Source of the DNA: Gammaproteobacteria bacterium
GTDB lineage: Bacteria; Pseudomonadota; Gammaproteobacteria; Steroidobacterales; GCA-2729495
DNA: 40,631 nucleotides
Reading direction: 5' to 3'
NCBI GenBank assembly: GCA_013001905.1
Contig: JABDLC010000015.1
Location: forward strand, 1-40,631
Positions 4,051 to 38,725 of the stretch are shown here, piece after piece. The notes beneath the pieces were generated by a model. It made no database searches, was not told where the DNA came from, and saw only the letters and a program-made list of their open reading frames with translations. Both the position numbers and the translations under genes were made by a program. Numbering within the stretch: position 1 is the first letter of the stretch; each line of letters opens with the position of its first letter.

Positions 4051-4147
4051 TTGCGGCTCCTGACGGCAGACGTGACAAAAGCGAGTCATCGGCGCTATGC
4101 TGATTTCAGTCACAATAAAATTCTGATCGTTGCCAGGGAGTAAGGCC

Positions 4148-4768
4148 GTGGGAAGGAAATCGGAAAAACGTTCTGACCGGCGCAAGGAATGTCAGCGCAC
4201 CGTACTGGCACAGGAAGCTGCCCGCCTGATCTGCGATCACGGCATCAGTGACTTCCGTACTGCGAAAGATAAAGCCGCATGGATGCTCGGCCTTAACGAA
4301 CACGGTGCACTTCCCAGCAATCGCGAAATAGAAGACGCCGTTGCCGAGCGCAACCGGATATTCGGAGCCGCCACCCACCCGCAATTACTCGGCCGTATCA
4401 GAGAAGCTGCAGTCAGCGTTATGCAGGACCTGATCGTTTTTCGGCCTCGTCTGGTGGGGTCGGTACTCAGCGGCAACGTGACTGAACACTCCAATATTAA
4501 TGTGCACGTGTTCGCAGACTCGTGTGAAGCTGTGAGCATGCGTCTGGACGCCATCGGGGTGCACTATCAGCTGCGTCAGCGTCGCCACAGTATTCGCCGC
4601 GGCCACACTGAGGAGTTCACAGGCTACGATTTCATGTCAGACGACTTCATCGTAGAGACCACGGTTTTTCCTGAACGCCGCAAAGGCCACGCACCATTGA
4701 GCCCTGTCGACGGCCGCCCGATGCAACGGGCGCATTTGCGGGATGTGGAATTGCTCGCTGCCGGCTAG
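4148..4768 (+). CDS. Nucleotidyltransferase-like protein with substituted catalytic aspartates
   Basis: This is a soluble 206-residue protein with a basic N-terminus and no signal or membrane segment. I chose GTG at 4148 because GGGAG lies seven bases upstream; a TTG at 4130 would add six residues but has no ribosome site. Residues 104-122 read [19 protein letters not shown]. This has the layout of the pol-beta-type nucleotidyltransferase signature (Gly-Ser, then about ten residues, then Asp-x-Asp), but both expected Asp positions are Asn (116 and 118). The C-terminal [11 protein letters not shown] suggests a conserved substrate or partner loop. It follows the PBP1A gene by 97 bases and its stop overlaps that of gltA by four bases. 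A lone TAAAAT at 4116-4121 could be a -10 box, without a matching -35. Function is unknown; the family link is inference from one motif. Confidence 0.7.
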
Positions 4769-9410: not shown

Positions 9411-10151
9411 TCAGGCTGTATAACGTAAAGCAGCGGCAGAGGTATTGTCGCTGTGCGGCGCAGCTTTCTTGGTGGCTGCCTGAGCGAGTTGCTGCAAGCC
9501 TGCCTCCAGTTCGACGGAGTCGTCGGCCAGCGCCGCAATATGCTCGCTGATCATCGGCGACCAGAAACCGTCACTGCAGGTCAGCATCACATCTTCCGGC
9601 TGCAGCACTTTGCGGGTGCTGATGGTCATCCGCGGCAACTCGGCATCGCCGCCGAGGCAACACTCGACGTAATTGCGCATCGGGTGCGATGAAAGTTCTT
9701 CGCGGGAAATACTACCGTCGTACAACAGCACTTCAACGTGACTGTGATCACGGGTGTGTTCAATAACTGCGCTGTCTCGCAGATGATAGACGCGACTGTC
9801 GCCGACATGAGCCCAGAAGGCGGAATCACCCTGCACCAGACAAAGTGCGCAGGTTGCTCGCGGACGGGTCTCGACCGAGATGTCGGCACCGAGCTCGACG
9901 ACGGCTGCATGCGCCTTGCCAATAGCAAGGTGCAAAAACCCGAAGGGGTCGAAAACCGGATGCGGCTCGGCATCGAACGCGCGCATGATGGAGTCAACAG
10001 CGAGCTCTGCGGCCCGCTCGCCATTCGCGTGGCCACCCATGCCGTCCACGGCGATTAGCAGCGTGACACCGTCTGCTTCCGCGACCGCGACCCGGTCCTG
10101 ATTGTCTTCGCGGTCACCAATCAGGCTGACCGCAGTACTTTCTGTGCTCAT
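9411..10151 (-). CDS. PP2C-family serine/threonine protein phosphatase (Stp-like)
   Basis: A 246-residue cytoplasmic PPM/PP2C phosphatase that removes phosphate from Ser/Thr using two metal ions. Metal-binding motifs are present: GDREDNQD (residues 12-19), VDGMGGH (35-41), HVGDSRVY (about 115-122), LTCSDGFW (about 181-188) and HSDNTS near the C-terminus. I chose ATG at 10151, preceded by GGATAA, over an upstream ATG that would add 13 unconserved residues. Bacterial PP2C enzymes of this size are usually partnered with a Hanks-type kinase. None is present in this window, so its substrate and kinase are unknown. It leads the rph-rdgB-hemW cluster and is divergent from yicC with an 85-base gap. 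Confidence 0.92.
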   Translation of the reverse strand: MSTESTAVSLIGDREDNQDRVAVAEADGVTLLIAVDGMGGHANGERAAELAVDSIMRAFDAEPHPVFDPFGFLHLAIGKAHAAVVELGADISVETRPRATCALCLVQGDSAFWAHVGDSRVYHLRDSAVIEHTRDHSHVEVLLYDGSISREELSSHPMRNYVECCLGGDAELPRMTISTRKVLQPEDVMLTCSDGFWSPMISEHIAALADDSVELEAGLQQLAQAATKKAAPHSDNTSAAALRYTA

Positions 10152-10236
10152 TCTTTTATCCGGAGCGGTTTCGGGAACCCACCGCGCCATCTACTATACG
10201 GGTACCAAACAGCGGGTGAGTTTACAGGAGACGACC

Positions 10237-11103
10237 GTGATCCACAGCATGACTGGTTTTGCCAGCAGTGAAAGCGACACGCCGCAAGGCACGTTGTTGT
10301 GGGAGCTGCGCTCGGTCAATCACCGCTATCTCGAGATGCAGTTCAAGCTACCGGACGGATTTCGCGCACTCGAACCGGCCTTGCGGGAGCTGATCAGCCG
10401 CAAGCTGAAGCGCGGCAAAGTCGATGCAACACTGCATTTTCGTCCGGCAACAACCGCAGCCGCGAATCTCACCGTCAACGAGGAACTGGCCCAGCAGGTC
10501 ATTCAGCAAGCGGAAAAGCTGGCTGCCGCCATCAGCACCCCGCAGTCATTCAGCTCACTGGATGTGCTGCGCTGGCCCGGCGTGGTTGCCGAGGACGGCG
10601 TCGACTTGAAAGCGCTGTTCGACCCGGCGCAAGCATTATTGAGCGAGACGCTCGATGCACTGGTGGCGAACCGCGCTCGCGAAGGCGAACGGATTCAGGC
10701 AGCGCTGGACGAGCGCCTGGTGCAGATCGACGCATTGGGCAGTTCCGTCGCGGCGCGCATGCCGCTGGTGCTCGACGGTATTCGGGCGCGGGTTCGTGAA
10801 CGGGCCCTGGGCCTCGAAATCAAAGTCGATGATGAACGACTGGAACAGGAACTTGTGCTGCTGGCGCAGAAGATGGACGTTGCCGAGGAGCTCGACCGGT
10901 TGCATGCGCACGTCGCGGAAACGCGGGAAACGTTCGCGATGGACGGCGCTGTCGGCAGGCGGCTCGATTTTCTGATGCAGGAATTTAATCGCGAAGCCAA
11001 TACACTCGGCTCAAAATCGGCGGACCCGGAAACCACGCGGGCCGCGGTCGACCTTAAAGTGCTGATTGAGCAATTGCGCGAGCAGGTGCAGAACGTCGAA
11101 TAG
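10237..11103 (+). CDS. yicC: YicC family endoribonuclease
   Basis: The 288-residue product is of standard YicC length. I chose GTG at 10237 because AGGAG lies six bases upstream and the protein then begins VIHSMTGFA, matching the family start; the longer upstream reading is not conserved. ATG at 10249 is a poorer alternative. The N-terminal YicC_N region includes WELRSVNHRYLEMQFKLP (about residues 24-41). The C-terminal DUF1732 region includes DVAEELDRLHAHVAETRE and GRRLDFLMQEFNREANTLGSK. In E. coli YicC acts as an endoribonuclease affecting small RNA turnover. It begins the yicC-gmk-rpoZ-spoT series and is divergent from the rph side, as in other gammaproteobacteria. Confidence 0.95.
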   Translation: MIHSMTGFASSESDTPQGTLLWELRSVNHRYLEMQFKLPDGFRALEPALRELISRKLKRGKVDATLHFRPATTAAANLTVNEELAQQVIQQAEKLAAAISTPQSFSSLDVLRWPGVVAEDGVDLKALFDPAQALLSETLDALVANRAREGERIQAALDERLVQIDALGSSVAARMPLVLDGIRARVRERALGLEIKVDDERLEQELVLLAQKMDVAEELDRLHAHVAETRETFAMDGAVGRRLDFLMQEFNREANTLGSKSADPETTRAAVDLKVLIEQLREQVQNVE

Positions 11104-11108
11104 TGACT

Positions 11109-12794
11109 TCAGGCAAAGGTATCGAAAACGGACCCTTTCGTGCCGGATAATTCATTCAGGCCTCGCACAGCACTCAGCGCAAACTGCTCAACGATCTGCA
11201 ACAGGCCCTGCCGGCCATCCGCGCCGTTCAGCAGCGCTTTAACATTGGGCCCGCTGGAACGCAGCTTCTTCGCCAACCGGTTGCGATCAACGCTGCCAAC
11301 ATCGCGAAAGCGGTCACCGGAAGCGTCCAGATCAAGGCGGATTCCCAGCGCTTTGCTCACCTCGCCGTTACCGAGCAAACCGCGCAGGGCGCCCTCCAGC
11401 TGATTGCGCAAGCCATTAACCGTCGCATCCTCCCGACCCCTGCCCGCCGTTTCACGAAAAAACGTATTGAGCGTTTTAACCGTGTCGGCAACCGCGGCAT
11501 TAATCTTGAGACTGCGGCGCTCCGAGTAACCGCGACCGCGGCCGTTAGCAGCGACCGTGCCTTCCTGTATCGCGAGCGCTGCAAAAAAACCGGTGCCGTT
11601 GGCATCGATATCCATGCTTGTTTCAGCAGAATCGCTCGTCAGCGTTACCCGCTGCCCGTCCGGGCTTAATTGGGCCGTGACGCCGGCATCTGACGTACTG
11701 ATGCGAGTCAATACATCATCAAGTGAGTCATTGCCGACATCAATCGCAATATTTTCTCCGTTGACCACGAGATTGCCGCTACTGACCGACGAGAATGCGT
11801 CAACCTGATCAAGCGTTGCGAGATTGTCTGCGTTACGCCCCGGCAGCGTTGTACCGGACCACAATTTAGTGGCGCGGAATAACCGCGCATTGTCATTCTG
11901 CAGGTTAACGCTGCCGCCGGGACCGGTCTGATTGGCAACAATCTCGACCTGCTCGGTCACCTCGTTATAGCTTGCAGTGACGCCTGCCGCAGACGCATTT
12001 ATCTTGTCCAAAGCCGAATTGATACTGTCAGTCTCGGCGATAGCGATCGTCTCGCCATTAATTCTGACCGTGCCATTACGAACCTGTGAGCCGCTGTATT
12101 CGATGTTCGCACCGAAACTGCCTATGCCTATAAACGGCTGATCAGGGTCGGCAGCGGACGAAATCGTATCGGATAAAGTGACCGTTGCAGTGTCGTCTCG
12201 TGTCAGCGTGCCGGCGCCAACGACAAAATACATGCCGTTGCCGATGCTGTACTTGCGGTCCAGAGCGTGATTTTCGCGAATCGTGCGCGTGGTCAGCCTG
12301 TCACCGAGCGGGTCATAGACACGGATTCGCGGCCGATCGACACCACGGACGCCGCCGCGTAGTACCTCCAGAACCAGATCACCGGCGCCGTTTTCGCCGT
12401 TGTAATCGCCGCCGACGGTCAGCATCGAAGTCGATGTGGCGCCGATATTCCACGCCGGCTCAAATGGACCATAGGAGCCCGTGTTCGCGTTGACTTCGTC
12501 CGTCGATACCCGGGTCGCGGCCAGATCACGCAAATCAAGACCCAACGCCGATTGCGAGCGCGAACTCGGCACGCCCGTCAGCACGGTCTTCGAGCCGTTA
12601 ACCAGGCGATCAAGCTCTGCGACCGCATCGAGAACGCGGATAAGCTGATCGCGCGCCTGCAGTTGCTGAAAACTCAACACCGGGGCCACGGAAGGGGCCT
12701 CCACAGCCGCGCGCGGCGCAGCGGCAGGTCGCTCGATGCGCGAGTAGCTATTCAGGTTTAGCAGCGTATTGCCGACCAGCAAGGCAAACTCCAA
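11109..12794 (-). CDS. FliD-like protein with two flagellin hook IN motifs (orphan)
   Basis: The protein is about 561 residues with no signal peptide. Residues 124-205 (GAGTL...DTATVTLSD) resemble a beta domain found in flagellins and hook-associated proteins. Two IN motifs follow, at about 241-285 (GTVRINGETIAIAE...) and 340-385 (GNLVVNGENIAIDV...). The C-terminus (KALGIRLDLDASGDRFRDV, about 481-499, then RNRLAKKL) matches the end of the filament cap FliD, which closes with a GI.LD..G pattern. No flagellar gene is near. The frame has no ATG start: TTG at 12794 follows GGGGCG, while TTG at 12782 follows GGAG by six bases. The open frame extends upstream to 12851, so a non-standard start is possible. 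It lies on the opposite strand between yicC and gmk. It may cap or anchor a filament, or be a secreted adhesin-like protein; function is unproven. Confidence 0.75.
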   Translation of the reverse strand: MEFALLVGNTLLNLNSYSRIERPAAAPRAAVEAPSVAPVLSFQQLQARDQLIRVLDAVAELDRLVNGSKTVLTGVPSSRSQSALGLDLRDLAATRVSTDEVNANTGSYGPFEPAWNIGATSTSMLTVGGDYNGENGAGDLVLEVLRGGVRGVDRPRIRVYDPLGDRLTTRTIRENHALDRKYSIGNGMYFVVGAGTLTRDDTATVTLSDTISSAADPDQPFIGIGSFGANIEYSGSQVRNGTVRINGETIAIAETDSINSALDKINASAAGVTASYNEVTEQVEIVANQTGPGGSVNLQNDNARLFRATKLWSGTTLPGRNADNLATLDQVDAFSSVSSGNLVVNGENIAIDVGNDSLDDVLTRISTSDAGVTAQLSPDGQRVTLTSDSAETSMDIDANGTGFFAALAIQEGTVAANGRGRGYSERRSLKINAAVADTVKTLNTFFRETAGRGREDATVNGLRNQLEGALRGLLGNGEVSKALGIRLDLDASGDRFRDVGSVDRNRLAKKLRSSGPNVKALLNGADGRQGLLQIVEQFALSAVRGLNELSGTKGSVFDTFA

Positions 12795-24071: not shown

Positions 24072-24638
24072 ATGAATAACCAAACCCGGGGACGGCTGAT
24101 TCTGCTAGGTATCGCGGCCGCGTTTGCCCTGCCGATTGCTACCGCCATGTTCTTCTATTTTTCAGATAACGGCTGGCGACCGGGTGAATACACCCAGCGC
24201 GGCGTGCTGATTACCCCGCCCCGCACCTTATCTGACACAGCGCTGACAGACGCACAGCCGGCGCCGCAGTTTCGCGAGGTCTGGTCGCTCGTGGTGCCGG
24301 CGGGCCGTAACTGCGATGACGTCTGTGCCGATGCGCTCGACAAAATACGTCAGACGCGACGCTGGCTCGGGCCAAAGATCACGCGGATGCAGACGGTATT
24401 TTTACCGACGGACAGCGCCGCGCTGACACCGGAACTCGCGGCCAGACACCCGCAGCTGATTACACCCGGTGACAGCGCACGCGCCGAGGCACGCCCGGTC
24501 ATTGGTGACTACACGAACGGCGACATCTTTCTGGTAGACCCTTTCGGCAACGTCATGATGTTGTACCCTGCTGGCACGGACATGGGAGACATCCGCAAGG
24601 ACCTCGGGCACCTGCTGAAATTGTCTACCATAGGCTGA
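24072..24638 (+). CDS. SCO1/thioredoxin-like protein of the oxidase assembly cluster
   Basis: The 188-residue protein has one N-terminal membrane anchor (about 9-29) and a periplasmic domain. CDDVC (81-85) is the CxxxC copper or thiol motif of SCO proteins. The C-terminal VDPFGNVMMLYPAG resembles the SCO region after the active site, but the His that completes the SCO copper site is not evident there. It may therefore act as a thiol reductant rather than a copper donor. It occupies the position of the hypothetical gene between SURF1 and ctaA in Pseudomonas. ATG at 24072 has no obvious ribosome site; it starts 57 bases after surf1. Confidence 0.8.
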   Translation: MNNQTRGRLILLGIAAAFALPIATAMFFYFSDNGWRPGEYTQRGVLITPPRTLSDTALTDAQPAPQFREVWSLVVPAGRNCDDVCADALDKIRQTRRWLGPKITRMQTVFLPTDSAALTPELAARHPQLITPGDSARAEARPVIGDYTNGDIFLVDPFGNVMMLYPAGTDMGDIRKDLGHLLKLSTIG

Positions 24639-24683: not shown

Positions 24684-25679
24684 ATGATCTGGTACAAACG
24701 CTTACTCTGGCTGGCAACGGCACTCACACTGATCGTGGTAGTGCTGGGCGCCTATGTGCGACTCAGCGACGCAGGTCTGGGCTGCCCCGACTGGCCGGGT
24801 TGCTACGGCGAACTGATTCCCACCGGTATCGAAGACGGCGACCAGCGCGGCGACGATTACCCGACGCGCCCTGTGGTCGAGACCGGCAAAGCCTGGAAAG
24901 AAATGATCCACCGCTATGTCGCCACGACGCTGGGCTTTTGCATCGTCCTGATCGCCTTGCTGGCTTGGCGTAACCGGCATGAACCCGGGCAACCGGTGGT
25001 GCTCCCCGCGGTCACACTCGGCGTCGTGATCTTTCAGGGCCTGCTCGGGATGTGGACGGTCACGCTGTTACTCAAACCCGTGATTGTGATGGGCCATCTG
25101 CTCGGGGGCCTCACCACGCTGGGATTATTGTTCTGGTTACTACTCGACGATGCGCGACGCGAAAAATTTGCCGGCGTCGCGTCTAAATTAGCGTGGCCTG
25201 CAGCAGTTGCTCTCGTGGTGCTCGTCATACAAATTGCGCTCGGCGGCTGGACCAGCTCGAACTACGCCATCTGGGGCTGCCCGGAAGTACCGACGTGCAA
25301 TGGCCAGTGGTGGCCGGAGAACGCCGACTTCAATGAAGGCTTCATCATGTGGCGCGGTATCGGTATCGACTACGAGTTCGGTGTGCTGGAAGCACCGGCG
25401 CGCGTTGCGATCGCGTTCGTGCATCGTCTCGGCGCGATTACAACGACACTGGTTTTGCTGGCTGTCACAACCTTCTACTGGCGCCGTCACCCGCATAACA
25501 CGCCACTGCGTACGGCATGCGCTGCCATCTGGGCCGCACTGGCCATGCAGGTCACGATCGGCATCTCTATCTTTCTGGTCGATGGCCATTTGCCGGTGGC
25601 GGCCGCGCACAACGGTGTCGCAGCCGTGTTGTTGCTGACGGTGATCAATCTGAATCATCTGGCCGCCCGTGCCCGTTAG
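24684..25679 (+). CDS. ctaA: Heme A synthase (CtaA/COX15)
   Basis: CtaA oxidises the methyl group of heme O to give heme A for aa3-type oxidases. The 331-residue membrane protein has about eight helices in two halves with the four His ligands: His76 (EMIHRYV), His138 (MGHLLGG), His247 (FVHRLGA) and His309 (AAHNGVA). The periplasmic Cys motif GLGCPDWPGCYGE after helix 1 and its partner GCPEVPTCNGQWWPE are also present. ATG at 24684 has GAGG seven bases upstream. Heme O synthase (ctaB) usually follows but is not here. Confidence 0.96.
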   Translation: MIWYKRLLWLATALTLIVVVLGAYVRLSDAGLGCPDWPGCYGELIPTGIEDGDQRGDDYPTRPVVETGKAWKEMIHRYVATTLGFCIVLIALLAWRNRHEPGQPVVLPAVTLGVVIFQGLLGMWTVTLLLKPVIVMGHLLGGLTTLGLLFWLLLDDARREKFAGVASKLAWPAAVALVVLVIQIALGGWTSSNYAIWGCPEVPTCNGQWWPENADFNEGFIMWRGIGIDYEFGVLEAPARVAIAFVHRLGAITTTLVLLAVTTFYWRRHPHNTPLRTACAAIWAALAMQVTIGISIFLVDGHLPVAAAHNGVAAVLLLTVINLNHLAARAR

Positions 25680-25696
25680 CCGTTTTTAAGCGTTCC

Positions 25697-26656
25697 GTGA
25701 CGCGCTTTAACATCACTATTGTGCTCGCCTGCGTGTTGCTGGCGATGCTGTTGTGGATCGTCCGCAGCACTGTCGGTGAGTGGACCAACCCGCAACCGCT
25801 GGTCATACCCGATACCGTGGCCACAGAGTCGCAGGCCGTGACTTTCGATCCGGATTTGCCGGTGATTTCATCCGGTGCGTCGCTGGCTGCCTATCTGCGG
25901 GAGAACGGTCTGGGCGGCGCACCGCTGCTGAACGACCTGCAGATCTGGCGTTTGCAGCGGGGTTTTCCTGACGACACGCACTGGCCCACGCAACCGCTGG
26001 TGACACAAAACACGGGAGCGCTGTCTGCGACAGCAGACGGCGCGGAACTCCTGCAGCAGGCTGCTGCGGGCAATATGGCTGCGATGCACCGGCTGGCTGA
26101 AAACAGCAAATTCGAAAACCCGGTTGAGGCGCTCGACTGGTTTGATATGGCGATGGTCAACGGCTCGCTCTATGCGATGCTGCGCACGGCAGACCTGCTG
26201 GCGTCACTCGGCGACCCTGCGCTCGCCGGATTTCGCAGCGACCCGGTATTTGCGCAGGCGCTCAACGAATTACAACAGGCAACACCGCCCCCGCGCGTGC
26301 GCTCACTTGCCTGGAGCATTGCGGCGATCACCGCCGGCGGCTTTGCACTTCTGGACGCTTCACATGCAGACCGTATCAGCAGCCTGACGGCTGATATGGA
26401 TGCTGCCAACATTAACAAGGCCTGCGAACTGGCTCAGAGTTTTGTGCTGGAGACCGCGATGGCGCGTCGCGCACGCGGCGGCGCAGTGTTCTCCACGGAC
26501 CGGCCGCTGTTTGCCGTCAGCGTCGCCGACCCGCAGGATGTGCTGCCGTGTGAAATTCCCGTGCAGCCGCTCGTCGATTTAAGCGGGTGCATTACCGAAC
26601 CCTTCGTCGGGCCCGGCCGTCGTTTATGGCAAATGTATTTTTGTCCGTCACCTTAA
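25697..26656 (+). CDS. Unknown membrane-anchored protein with a Sel1-like helical region
   Basis: I do not recognise this gene. The 319-residue product (GTG at 25697) has one N-terminal membrane helix (about 6-22) and a large domain that should be periplasmic. About residues 110-180 contain helical repeats with an alanine/leucine pattern (ADGAELLQQAAAGNMAAMHR, ALDWFDMAMVNGSLYA) that resemble Sel1/TPR-like repeats. Four Cys sit in the C-terminal third (CELAQ, VLPCEIPV, SGCITEP, and YFCPSP at the very end), so disulfides are possible. It starts 18 bases after ctaA and probably shares its transcript, in the place where ctaB is usually found; the upstream reading within ctaA is rejected. No function is claimed. 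Confidence 0.75.
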   Translation: MTRFNITIVLACVLLAMLLWIVRSTVGEWTNPQPLVIPDTVATESQAVTFDPDLPVISSGASLAAYLRENGLGGAPLLNDLQIWRLQRGFPDDTHWPTQPLVTQNTGALSATADGAELLQQAAAGNMAAMHRLAENSKFENPVEALDWFDMAMVNGSLYAMLRTADLLASLGDPALAGFRSDPVFAQALNELQQATPPPRVRSLAWSIAAITAGGFALLDASHADRISSLTADMDAANINKACELAQSFVLETAMARRARGGAVFSTDRPLFAVSVADPQDVLPCEIPVQPLVDLSGCITEPFVGPGRRLWQMYFCPSP

Positions 26657-35645: not shown

Positions 35646-36005
35646 ATGTTCGATATCGGCTTCTGGGAGCTCGTCATTCTGTTCGGGCTCGGCCTGTTAG
35701 TGCTGGGCCCCGAACGCATGCCTCGCGTGGCCGCGAAACTCGGTCGCTGGGTCGGTCAGGCCCGCAACATGGCGCGCCATCTGAACAATCAGATCCGCGA
35801 TGAGATTGAGCCTTTCGAGTCCGGTCTAAATTCCGTCAAAGAGACTTTGAACAAAGACGTACGTGATGATTTTCGCGCGCGCCGTCCTGAACCCGGTCAA
35901 CCTGCCACCGATGAGGCGTCATCAGCCGACAGTGCCTCGGGCGAGTCCGGCAAAGATGCGGCCGGCACCGATAAGCCAACCGATAAGCCAGCCGATAAAC
36001 CATGA
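35646..36005 (+). CDS. tatB: TatB, receptor subunit of the twin-arginine translocase
   Basis: The 119-residue TatB has MFDIGFWELVILFGLGLLVLGPERMP: the Glu in the helix and the GPERMP hinge are TatB-specific. The amphipathic helix follows (AAKLGRWVGQARNMARHL). The C-terminus is charged and ends in a DKPTDKPADKP repeat coded by a 12-bp tandem repeat. TatB and TatC bind twin-arginine signal peptides. It starts five bases after tatA and its stop overlaps the tatC start by four bases (ATGA). Confidence 0.95.
   Translation: MFDIGFWELVILFGLGLLVLGPERMPRVAAKLGRWVGQARNMARHLNNQIRDEIEPFESGLNSVKETLNKDVRDDFRARRPEPGQPATDEASSADSASGESGKDAAGTDKPTDKPADKP
35967..36002 (+). repeat. 12-bp tandem repeat at the tatB/tatC junction
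   Basis: ACCGATAAGCCA occurs twice in perfect tandem (35967-35990); a third copy with two changes (35991-36002) runs into the A of the tatC ATG. It encodes the DKPT/DKPA repeats at the end of TatB. Units are multiples of three, so copy changes preserve the frame. Confidence 0.8.
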
Positions 36006-36796
36006 GTGACGAACTGCCCGATCACGAGCCGTTGCCGGACGAGGACGAAGTGCTCGAGGAGACCAGTCTGGTCTCGCACCTGATCGAACTCCGCGACCGC
36101 CTGTTGCGGCTCGTTGTCGCCGTGCTGATTGTGTTCGCATGCCTGTTGCCGTTCACCGAAGAACTGTTCACGCTGGTCGCACAACCGCTGATCAATGAGT
36201 TGCCGGAAAACTCGACGATGATTGCGACCCAGGTCGCCGCGCCATTTCTTACGCCGTTCAAAACCGTGCTGTGGCTGGCTATTTTTATCGCAATGCCGAT
36301 TGTGATCTATCAGATCTGGGCATTTGTGGCGCCCGGTTTGTATAAGAATGAAAAACGCTTTGCAGTGCCGCTCGTCGTGTCGAGCATCATCCTGTTTTAC
36401 TGCGGTGTCGCGTTTGCGTACGGCGTGGTGTTCCCGCTGATGTTTGCGTTCTTTAACTCGGTCGCACCGGAAGGTGTCGCCGTCATGACCGACATCGACA
36501 ATTATCTGAGCTTTGTGCTGGTGCTGTTCTTCGCGTTCGGCATGGCATTTGAAGTTCCGATTGCCACCGTCATGCTGGTCTGGTCCGGGCTTACAACGCC
36601 CGCGAAGCTCGGTGAAGCGCGCCCTTACGTGTTTCTCGGTGCCTTTGTGGCCGGCATGCTGCTGACACCACCGGATGTCATTTCGCAAACATTGCTCGCG
36701 GTACCGGTGTACCTGCTGTACGAAGCAGGCATCATCATGGCGCGGATCATGCTGCCACCGAAAAACGAAGACGAGACTGAAACCGCACCTTCCTGA
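36002..36796 (+). CDS. tatC: TatC, core subunit of the twin-arginine translocase
   Basis: TatC is the six-helix protein that recognises the twin-arginine motif. The 264-residue product has the conserved HLIELRDRLLRLV after an acidic N-terminus, and FLTPFKTVLWLAIFIAMPIV, YQIWAFVAPGLYKNEKRF and FGMAFEVPIATVMLVWSGL, the signature blocks. ATG at 36002 overlaps the tatB stop. The N-terminal acidic stretch (about residues 2-20) is somewhat longer than in E. coli. It ends 27 bases before the OPT-family gene. Confidence 0.96.
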   Translation: MSDELPDHEPLPDEDEVLEETSLVSHLIELRDRLLRLVVAVLIVFACLLPFTEELFTLVAQPLINELPENSTMIATQVAAPFLTPFKTVLWLAIFIAMPIVIYQIWAFVAPGLYKNEKRFAVPLVVSSIILFYCGVAFAYGVVFPLMFAFFNSVAPEGVAVMTDIDNYLSFVLVLFFAFGMAFEVPIATVMLVWSGLTTPAKLGEARPYVFLGAFVAGMLLTPPDVISQTLLAVPVYLLYEAGIIMARIMLPPKNEDETETAPS

Positions 36797-36823
36797 GTCT
36801 CTCTCCACCGGTCGAGGAGCACC

Positions 36824-38725
36824 ATGAATACGGCTGCGAATACGGCGACACCGCCGCCCCAACTGACTGTGAAAGCGATCCTGCTGGGTATCGCACTGGC
36901 CATGATTCTTGCCGGCGCCAACGCCTATCTGGGGCTGTTCGCCGGGCTCACCGTGTCAGCATCCATACCGGCCGCCGTCATTTCGATGGGCATTCTTAAG
37001 CTCTTTAAGAACAGCAATATTCTCGAAAATAACATTGTGCAGACGTCGGCATCGGCCGGTGAGTCGCTCGCGGCAGGTGCCATCTTCACGTTGCCTGCAC
37101 TGATTCTGCTCGGTTACTGGGAAGTGTTCGATTACTGGTGGGTCTGTGCAATCGCAGGGCTCGGCGGCTTGCTCGGCGTGCTATTTACTATCCCGTTGCG
37201 ACGATCGCTGATCATTGAGCAAGCGCTGCCGTTTCCGGAGGGCACGGCAACCGCCGAAGTACTGCGCGCGGGTGATAAACCCGGTGCAGGTCTGAAGATA
37301 CTCGGTGTCGCGGCACTGACCGGCGGGCTGGTGAAGTTCGCAGAAACCGGTCTCAAGCTGTGGCCGGCGACCGCACAAACGGGCGGCAGCGTTGGCAACA
37401 CGGTCTTTTATGCGGGGGCCAACGTATCGCCGGCGCTGCTCAGTGTCGGCTACATCGTCGGGTTAAACATCGCTGCACTGGTTTTTATCGGCGGCTTTAT
37501 TTCCTGGGGCATCGCCATTCCGATTTACAGCACCTGGTTTATGGAGCCGGAACTGGCGGCCGGTAAAGACAGTGTCGCGCTTGCGTACACGATCTGGAGC
37601 AACAAGATTCGCTACCTCGGTGTCGGTGCCATGCTGGTCGGCGGCATCTGGGCCTTGATTTCGATACGCGGATCGGTATTTTCCGGCATCCGCAGCGGCC
37701 TCGTTGCCAGTCGCCGCAACGACACTGCGGAGCGGCCGCATACAGAACATGACACGCCCATGAAATTTGTACTGGTCGGCGTCATGTTGTTGGTGATTCC
37801 GATTTTCCTGCTCTACAACGTCATCGCCGGGGCAACGAACATCGCGCTGGCGATGACACTCGTCATGATCATCGCGGGATTCCTGTTCAGTGCGGTCGCC
37901 GGTTATATGGCCGGCCTGGTCGGGTCATCGAACAACCCCGTGTCCGGCATCACCATCGCCACAATTCTGTCGGCCTCATTGTTGCTGCTGTGGCTGGCCG
38001 GACCCACCAGTGCGGCAGCGGCGGCGGCGATCATGATCGGCGCTGTGGTCTGTTGCTCGGCCGCGATCGCCGGCGACAACATGCAGGACCTGAAAGCCGG
38101 TTACCTGCTTGGCGCGACACCCTGGAAACAACAACTCATGCAGGCCATTGGCGTGATCTCCGCCGTGCTGGTGATGGCACCCGTGCTGAATCTGCTGCTG
38201 GCCGCGTACGGCATCGGGCCGGCCACCGAAGCCCAACCCAATTCACTGGCAGCACCGCAGGCGACCCTGATGGCCTCGGTCGCTGAAGGCGTACTCGGCG
38301 GCGAATTGCCGTGGAACCTGATCCTGATCGGCGCAGCCATCGGTGTCGCCATTATCGCGACCGATGAATACCTGCGGGTGCGCGGCGCCGCTTTTCGTGC
38401 CCCGATACTTGCGGTCGCCGTGGGAATTTATCTGCCGTTCGAGTTAGCCATCCCGATTTTTGCCGGCGGGCTGATCAGCTGGCTGTCGAGCCGCCGTGAC
38501 CCCGATGCCGCCCGCAAGGGCCCGGGCGTGCTGTTTGCGGCCGGTCTGATTACTGGTGAAGCGCTGATCGGCATACTCATGGCGATTCCTATCGTGCTGA
38601 GCGGCCGGCCGGACGTTCTGGCGGCTCCCGACACGCTGCGAATGACAGCGTTCGCCAGTCTGGCGGCTCTTTGCATCGTGGCCGCGGCACTCTGGCGGGT
38701 ATCCGTGCGGTTACCCCAAAGCTGA
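36824..38725 (+). CDS. OPT-family oligopeptide/metal-chelate transporter
   Basis: The 633-residue protein has about 14-16 hydrophobic segments typical of the OPT family of proton-coupled importers of small peptides or metal-chelates. The N-terminal LAGANAYLGLFAGLTVSASIPAA and the LPFPEGTATAEVL loop are family hallmarks, along with NIVQTSASAGESLAAG and a later CCSAAIAGDNMQDLKAGYLLG. ATG at 36824 has a GAGGAG ribosome site. The gene follows tatC by 27 bases but has its own strong site. A TonB receptor lies downstream. The substrate is not readable from sequence. Confidence 0.93.
   Translation: MNTAANTATPPPQLTVKAILLGIALAMILAGANAYLGLFAGLTVSASIPAAVISMGILKLFKNSNILENNIVQTSASAGESLAAGAIFTLPALILLGYWEVFDYWWVCAIAGLGGLLGVLFTIPLRRSLIIEQALPFPEGTATAEVLRAGDKPGAGLKILGVAALTGGLVKFAETGLKLWPATAQTGGSVGNTVFYAGANVSPALLSVGYIVGLNIAALVFIGGFISWGIAIPIYSTWFMEPELAAGKDSVALAYTIWSNKIRYLGVGAMLVGGIWALISIRGSVFSGIRSGLVASRRNDTAERPHTEHDTPMKFVLVGVMLLVIPIFLLYNVIAGATNIALAMTLVMIIAGFLFSAVAGYMAGLVGSSNNPVSGITIATILSASLLLLWLAGPTSAAAAAAIMIGAVVCCSAAIAGDNMQDLKAGYLLGATPWKQQLMQAIGVISAVLVMAPVLNLLLAAYGIGPATEAQPNSLAAPQATLMASVAEGVLGGELPWNLILIGAAIGVAIIATDEYLRVRGAAFRAPILAVAVGIYLPFELAIPIFAGGLISWLSSRRDPDAARKGPGVLFAAGLITGEALIGILMAIPIVLSGRPDVLAAPDTLRMTAFASLAALCIVAAALWRVSVRLPQS

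What the first reader, a model, noticed from the sequence alone, without database searches (positions are those of the whole stretch)
11109..12794. Orphan FliD-like gene inserted in the yicC-gmk cluster
A 561-residue protein with two flagellin hook IN motifs and a FliD-like C-terminus lies on the opposite strand between two genes that are normally adjacent and co-directional. No flagellar gene is present. It lacks an ATG start. It could be a filament cap for a distant flagellum, or a repurposed cap/adhesin.
Basis: partly seen in the sequence, partly recalled or inferred. Interest (0 to 1): 0.6.

Follow-up and report, generated by a model that had tools for sequence, protein, structure and literature searches.

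The report
Stand-alone FliD-like accessory flagellar protein
This gene makes a relative of the protein that caps bacterial flagella, but without the helix that plugs the cap into the filament; it sits far from the flagellar genes, in a genome that also has an ordinary cap gene, and in related marine bacteria it occurs almost only in flagellated species and carries a flagellar-type promoter.

Summary
The ORF is real: 557 aa from TTG 12782 (GGAG Shine-Dalgarno), not 561. It lies between yicC and gmk, which abut in four congeners. Pfam finds two Flagellin_IN motifs but neither FliD_N nor FliD_C. The predicted fold nevertheless matches FliD best (E. coli D1-D2-D3, Z 14.5, model 37-549), and the C-terminal region alone gives a weak FliD-specific profile signal. 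FliD's N-terminal motif and C-terminal D0 helix are absent. It is not a relocated fliD: the genome has flgE-flgL, fliC, flaG, fliD and fliS elsewhere. It belongs to a conserved stand-alone family (18 of 296 genomes of the order, 32-41% identity, scattered loci) found almost only with flagella: in family f7 (Woeseiaceae) 11 of 12 carriers have fliD versus 24 of 95 non-carriers, and the twelfth has flagellin. All 12 Woeseiaceae loci tested have a FliA (sigma-28) type promoter, against 4 of 157 neighbouring genes. The window gene and the other lineages show no such site. Best reading: a late flagellar accessory protein related to the FliD cap, probably exported by the flagellar system and acting at the filament tip or as an adhesin. 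The flagellar link is well supported; the mechanism is inferred.

The parts
11109..12782 (-).
   Evidence: ORF; start by homologue alignment and Shine-Dalgarno
12789..12792 (-). Shine-Dalgarno GGAG, 6 bases before TTG 12782
   Evidence: sequence CTTTGGAGTTTGCC-TTG
12600..12671 (-). predicted N-terminal D1 helix (residues 38-61)
   Evidence: AlphaFold2 model, aligned with FliD from residue 44
11927..12053 (-). Flagellin_IN motif 1 (about residues 244-285)
   Evidence: Pfam
11598..11792 (-). Flagellin_IN motif 2 (about residues 331-395)
   Evidence: second Pfam stretch; hhalign to the FliD IN region; limits approximate
11145..11522 (-). C-terminal helical region (residues 421-546) resembling the C-terminal D1 of FliD; only 11 residues follow, so the FliD D0 helix is absent
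10102..11103 (+). yicC (YicC/YloC endoribonuclease), convergent neighbour, 5 bp away
   Evidence: TIGR00255
12913..13554 (+). gmk, guanylate kinase, divergent neighbour
   Evidence: TIGR03263

Best explanation
The gene encodes an accessory flagellar protein related to the FliD filament cap: FliD-type D1 helices around an enlarged beta head with two IN domains, without FliD's N-terminal motif or its C-terminal D0 docking helix. Shown: fold similarity to FliD, co-occurrence with flagella, FliA-type promoters in one family. Inferred: it is made as a late flagellar product, exported through the flagellar secretion channel by its conserved N-terminus, and either joins the FliD cap at the filament tip or is released as a surface adhesin. 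Because it lacks the helix thought to dock FliD in the filament, it should not replace FliD.
For: Top ten VIA-align matches are all FliD, Z 10.6-14.5, the best spanning model residues 37-549; the five Foldseek matches with E < 1e-3 in the PDB are FliD/cap complexes. The C-terminal profile aligns with FliD (E 0.0012) and not with flagellin (0.14) or FlgL (0.27) of the same bacteria. The own genome has a separate fliD in a flagellar cluster. In family f7, 11/12 carriers have FliD vs 24/95 non-carriers, Fisher p 1.2e-5; the exception G281 has flagellins. Order: 15/18 vs 117/278, p 9e-4. FliA-type sites upstream of all 12 Woeseiaceae loci tested vs 4 of 157 neighbouring genes; consensus TAAAGTTT-N11-GCCGATAA is published for Pseudomonas (PMC7286023).
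Against: No FliD_N or FliD_C match above cut-off. Profile-profile probabilities are low (19-26%). The model is middling (pLDDT 75, pTM 0.35) and the FliD superposition has rmsd near 13 A, so domains match but their arrangement is uncertain. The window gene and the homologues in f16, f6, f5 and f3 have no FliA site better than shuffles. Two carriers (G067, G128) show neither FliD nor flagellin, though both assemblies are fragmented. Related genomes are not independent, so Fisher values overstate the evidence. Export and location are untested.
Confidence: 0.62

Rival explanations
1. A second, alternative filament cap that replaces FliD on some filaments (for example at another growth stage).
For: FliD-like fold over D1-D2-D3; FliA-type promoter in f7.
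Against: No C-terminal D0 helix, the part proposed to contact the filament lumen, where mutations reduce motility in C. jejuni (PMC7316729). Carriers with FliD have one ordinary FliD each; a second flagellar system was not sought systematically.
Confidence: 0.1
2. A surface or secreted adhesin that reuses IN and FliD-like domains and is exported by another route; its link with flagella is indirect, through a particle-attached life style.
For: Genes lie outside flagellar clusters, one next to ORFs that look like type IV pilus minor pilins (by inspection). Sediment Woeseiaceae MAGs mostly have flagella (PMC12175321), so co-occurrence could reflect habitat.
Against: FliA-type promoters at 12 of 12 Woeseiaceae loci tie it to the flagellar programme there; no Sec signal or anchor is apparent in the N-terminus (inspection only).
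Confidence: 0.17
3. A cytoplasmic regulator or decoy that binds FliD or its chaperone and tunes filament assembly.
For: A FliD-like D1 without D0 could bind FliD partners without docking (inference).
Against: A large beta head with two IN domains is typical of exported axial proteins; no direct evidence for a cytoplasmic role.
Confidence: 0.06
4. Relocated ordinary fliD.
For: FliD-like fold.
Against: The genome has fliD with its flagellar cluster; 15 of 18 carriers have a separate FliD.
Confidence: 0.01

Closest known systems
FliD (HAP2), flagellar filament cap; Pfam FliD_N/FliD_C
   Same: Predicted D1 helices at both ends around beta head domains; IN domain; C-terminal D1 profile signal
   Different: No GxGSGLD N-terminal motif, no C-terminal D0 helix, two IN domains, no Pfam FliD match above cut-off, gene outside flagellar clusters and coexisting with a true fliD
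Flagellins and FlgK/FlgL (HAP1/HAP3) with IN or related domains
   Same: IN-type and beta head domains align (FlgK 5xbj Z 9.5, FlgL 5zj0 Z 8.4)
   Different: No similarity of the terminal helices by profile (flagellin and FlgL tested); no Flagellin_N match in the Pfam scan
FliD as adhesin (e.g. P. aeruginosa mucin binding, reviewed in PMC4009794)
   Same: Possible functional parallel for a cap-related surface protein
   Different: There the ordinary cap does both jobs; no binding is known here

Membership tests
FliD filament cap | FliD_N and FliD_C Pfam domains above cut-off | tested here: not met
   Absent for this protein at E <= 10; FliD_C in 3 of 16 members at E 0.022 or worse
FliD filament cap | D1-D2-D3 fold | tested here: met
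   Best matches are FliD, Z up to 14.5 over 37-549, Foldseek E 2.5e-7; domain arrangement uncertain (rmsd 12.6), predicted model only
FliD filament cap | N-terminal GxGSGLD motif and C-terminal D0 helix | tested here: not met
   Motif present in own FliD, absent here; only 11 residues follow the last D1 helix
FliD filament cap | Gene in flagellar cluster, sole cap gene | tested here: not met
   True fliD on contig C9
FliD filament cap | Oligomer at filament tip, required for filament growth | not testable with these tools
   needs experiment
Proteins with Flagellin_IN motif | Flagellin_IN above cut-off | tested here: met
   32.9 bits vs 22.7, two stretches; 14 of 16 members match at E <= 1
FliA (sigma-28) regulon | TAAAGTTT/TCAAGTTT-N11-GCCGATAA upstream | tested here: inconclusive
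   Met in 12 of 12 Woeseiaceae homologues tested; not met in the window gene (score equal to shuffles) or in six other-lineage homologues
Flagellin (FliC) | Flagellin_N and Flagellin_C | tested here: not met
   no match at E <= 10

The most novel reading that the evidence does not exclude
A previously undescribed late flagellar protein family, a FliD relative without the docking helix, works alongside the ordinary cap (as a tip subunit or filament-delivered adhesin) in flagellated Woeseiaceae and related Gammaproteobacteria, and changes genomic place as a single gene.
Probability: 0.45. Interest if true: 0.6.

Novelty: new variant of a known kind. Interest (0 to 1): 0.48.

Why it matters
Filament caps are usually thought of as one protein, FliD, encoded with the flagellins. 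A FliA-linked cap relative without the docking helix, kept beside a normal fliD, would mean some flagella carry an extra tip or secreted component. It would add a testable flagellar gene in a bacterial group common in marine sediments. Full-text searches of the open-access library found no description of such a family, which is weak evidence of novelty.

Tried and rejected
Relocated fliD: rejected, own fliD exists. Misbinned contig (assembly contamination 5.2%): rejected for this contig, since gmk (64-70%) and gltA (85-91%) are closest to four congeners. Recent foreign DNA by composition: GC 58.4% vs 59.6% for the window, no anomaly. Phage or plasmid origin: no viral-contig or plasmid homologue, no PHROG. 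Conserved neighbourhood: none beyond closely related genomes; neighbours scanned are unrelated. Sigma-54 sites upstream of non-f7 members: best 10 of 12 specified bases in one (L063), others 6-8, not pursued. GTCAA[AG] recurs upstream in 7 of 7 non-f7 members; unexplained, no statistics. BFVD matches are tail-sheath-like and other proteins with low TM-scores. No RNA family nearby.

Full report
Observation. The ORF is present at 11109-12794 (-). In relatives the protein starts with MSxIxxLQNL; the window residue that aligns with that M is TTG 12782, preceded by GGAG six bases upstream, so the protein is 557 aa. The gene ends 5 bp from yicC (convergent) and starts 130 bp from gmk (divergent). 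yicC and gmk abut in four congeners and in carrier G042, so the gene's place between them is specific to this species among those examined. The contig belongs to its genus: gmk and gltA are closest to the four congeners. None of the four congeners, and none of the other genomes of its family that were sampled, has the gene.

Domains. Pfam gives only Flagellin_IN above cut-off, two stretches, 32.9 bits. NCBIfam FliD models hit the IN region far below their cut-offs. No PHROG and no convincing PDB sequence match.

Family. Four full-length proteins were found first, then 18 carriers (plus one very weak match) among 296 genomes of the order and 12 among 107 genomes of family f7. Named records of matches include several Woeseiaceae MAGs and others labelled Gammaproteobacteria or Rhodospirillales/Rhodospirillaceae (MAG titles as deposited); G042, a member of f7, is the contig of a Woeseiaceae MAG. 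Outside the order only one clear fragment was seen in 369 genomes of the class, so the family is rare there. Members align end to end, 32-41% identical to the window protein, with conserved ends (MSxIxxLQNL......GTxVDTxA). The gene tree groups mostly by family. Genomic places differ between lineages, so this is a single-gene family that has changed place often.

Link with flagella. The window genome has flgE, flgH, flgI, flgJ, flgK, flgL, fliC, flaG, fliD and fliS together on contig C9, and one FliD_C match in all. Across the order 15 of 18 carriers have a separate FliD, against 132 of 296 genomes overall. Within f7, 11 of 12 carriers have FliD against 24 of 95 non-carriers (Fisher p 1.2e-5), and the twelfth (G281, 82% complete) has flagellins. 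The genomes are related and many are incomplete, so these p-values are indicative.

Promoter. Eleven f7 carriers with an upstream region, plus a Woeseia record (L019), were scanned: all 12 have a FliA-like site (TAAAG, TCAAG or a near variant, spacer 10 or 11, then GCCGATA or ACCGATA), roughly 35 to 100 bases before the start. The same scan passed only 4 of 157 other genes in these neighbourhoods. fliC genes of the same genomes mostly have sites with the same spacer. The published Pseudomonas consensus is TAAAGTTT-N11-GCCGATAA (PMC7286023). The window's own fliC has a perfect TCAAGTTT-N12-GCCGATAA, but the window gene has no site above shuffles, nor do the f16, f6, f5 and f3 homologues. The FliA argument therefore applies to the family in Woeseiaceae and is only transferred to the window gene by homology.

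Fold. The AlphaFold2 model (pLDDT 75, pTM 0.35) has a disordered start (1-34), a helix (38-61), a beta region to about 410, and helices to 546. Foldseek's only PDB matches with E below 1e-3 are FliD or cap complexes. VIA-align ranks FliD entries 1-10, best E. coli FliD D1-D2-D3 (5h5v), Z 14.5, 248 residues aligned, model 37-549 against FliD 44-411, but rmsd 12.6 A shows that domain orientation is not reproduced. FlgK and FlgL match single head domains. The C-terminal region alone aligns with FliD 309-389 (E 0.0012, probability 19%) and not with flagellin or FlgL; alignments are shallow. FliD residues beyond about 410, the D0 helix, have no counterpart: 11 residues remain. In C. jejuni FliD this C-terminal helix is proposed to contact the filament lumen, and mutations in it reduce motility (PMC7316729).

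Mechanism. Shown: conserved protein, FliD-like domains, absence of the FliD docking helix, coexistence with true fliD, association with flagella, FliA-type promoters in Woeseiaceae. Inferred: late flagellar expression, export by the flagellar system, action at the tip with FliD or as a filament-delivered adhesin. Ordinary FliD has been reported as an adhesin in some bacteria (PMC4009794), and sediment Woeseiaceae mostly encode flagella (PMC12175321), which makes adhesion plausible but does not test it.

Verdict. Not a relocated fliD and not a member of FliD by the usual tests, but a relative that probably works within the flagellar programme: a new variant of a known kind.

Noticed in passing
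L053 upstream of 6276 and L054 upstream of 7377 (the family gene's start): Palindromes (GGGGACATTCTGCTTTTT...AAAAAGCAGAATGTCCCC; GGGTCGAACCGATTTTC...GAAATCGGTTCGACCC) lie directly upstream of the FliA-like site, perhaps REP-type elements that relate to the gene's changing locations. Seen in the sequences printed.
   Followed up: no
upstream of the family gene in window, L010, L011, L057, L059, L060, L063: GTCAAG (GTCAAA in L059) recurs 26-98 bases before the start in every non-f7 member, where no FliA -10 box is found.
   Followed up: partly
L009:410-6880: In G042 the family gene directly follows a run of ORFs that look like type IV pilus minor pilin genes with a PilY1-like 1063-aa protein (by inspection); not tested by HMM.
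   Followed up: no
window 4130-4765, 24072-24635, 25517-26653, 35900-36862: ORFs of 188-379 aa without a Pfam match at E 1e-10; some may not be genes.
   Followed up: no
L086:1-528: C-terminal fragment of a family member in a genome outside the order (ends GYLIDTLA), next to a short-chain dehydrogenase-like ORF.
   Followed up: partly
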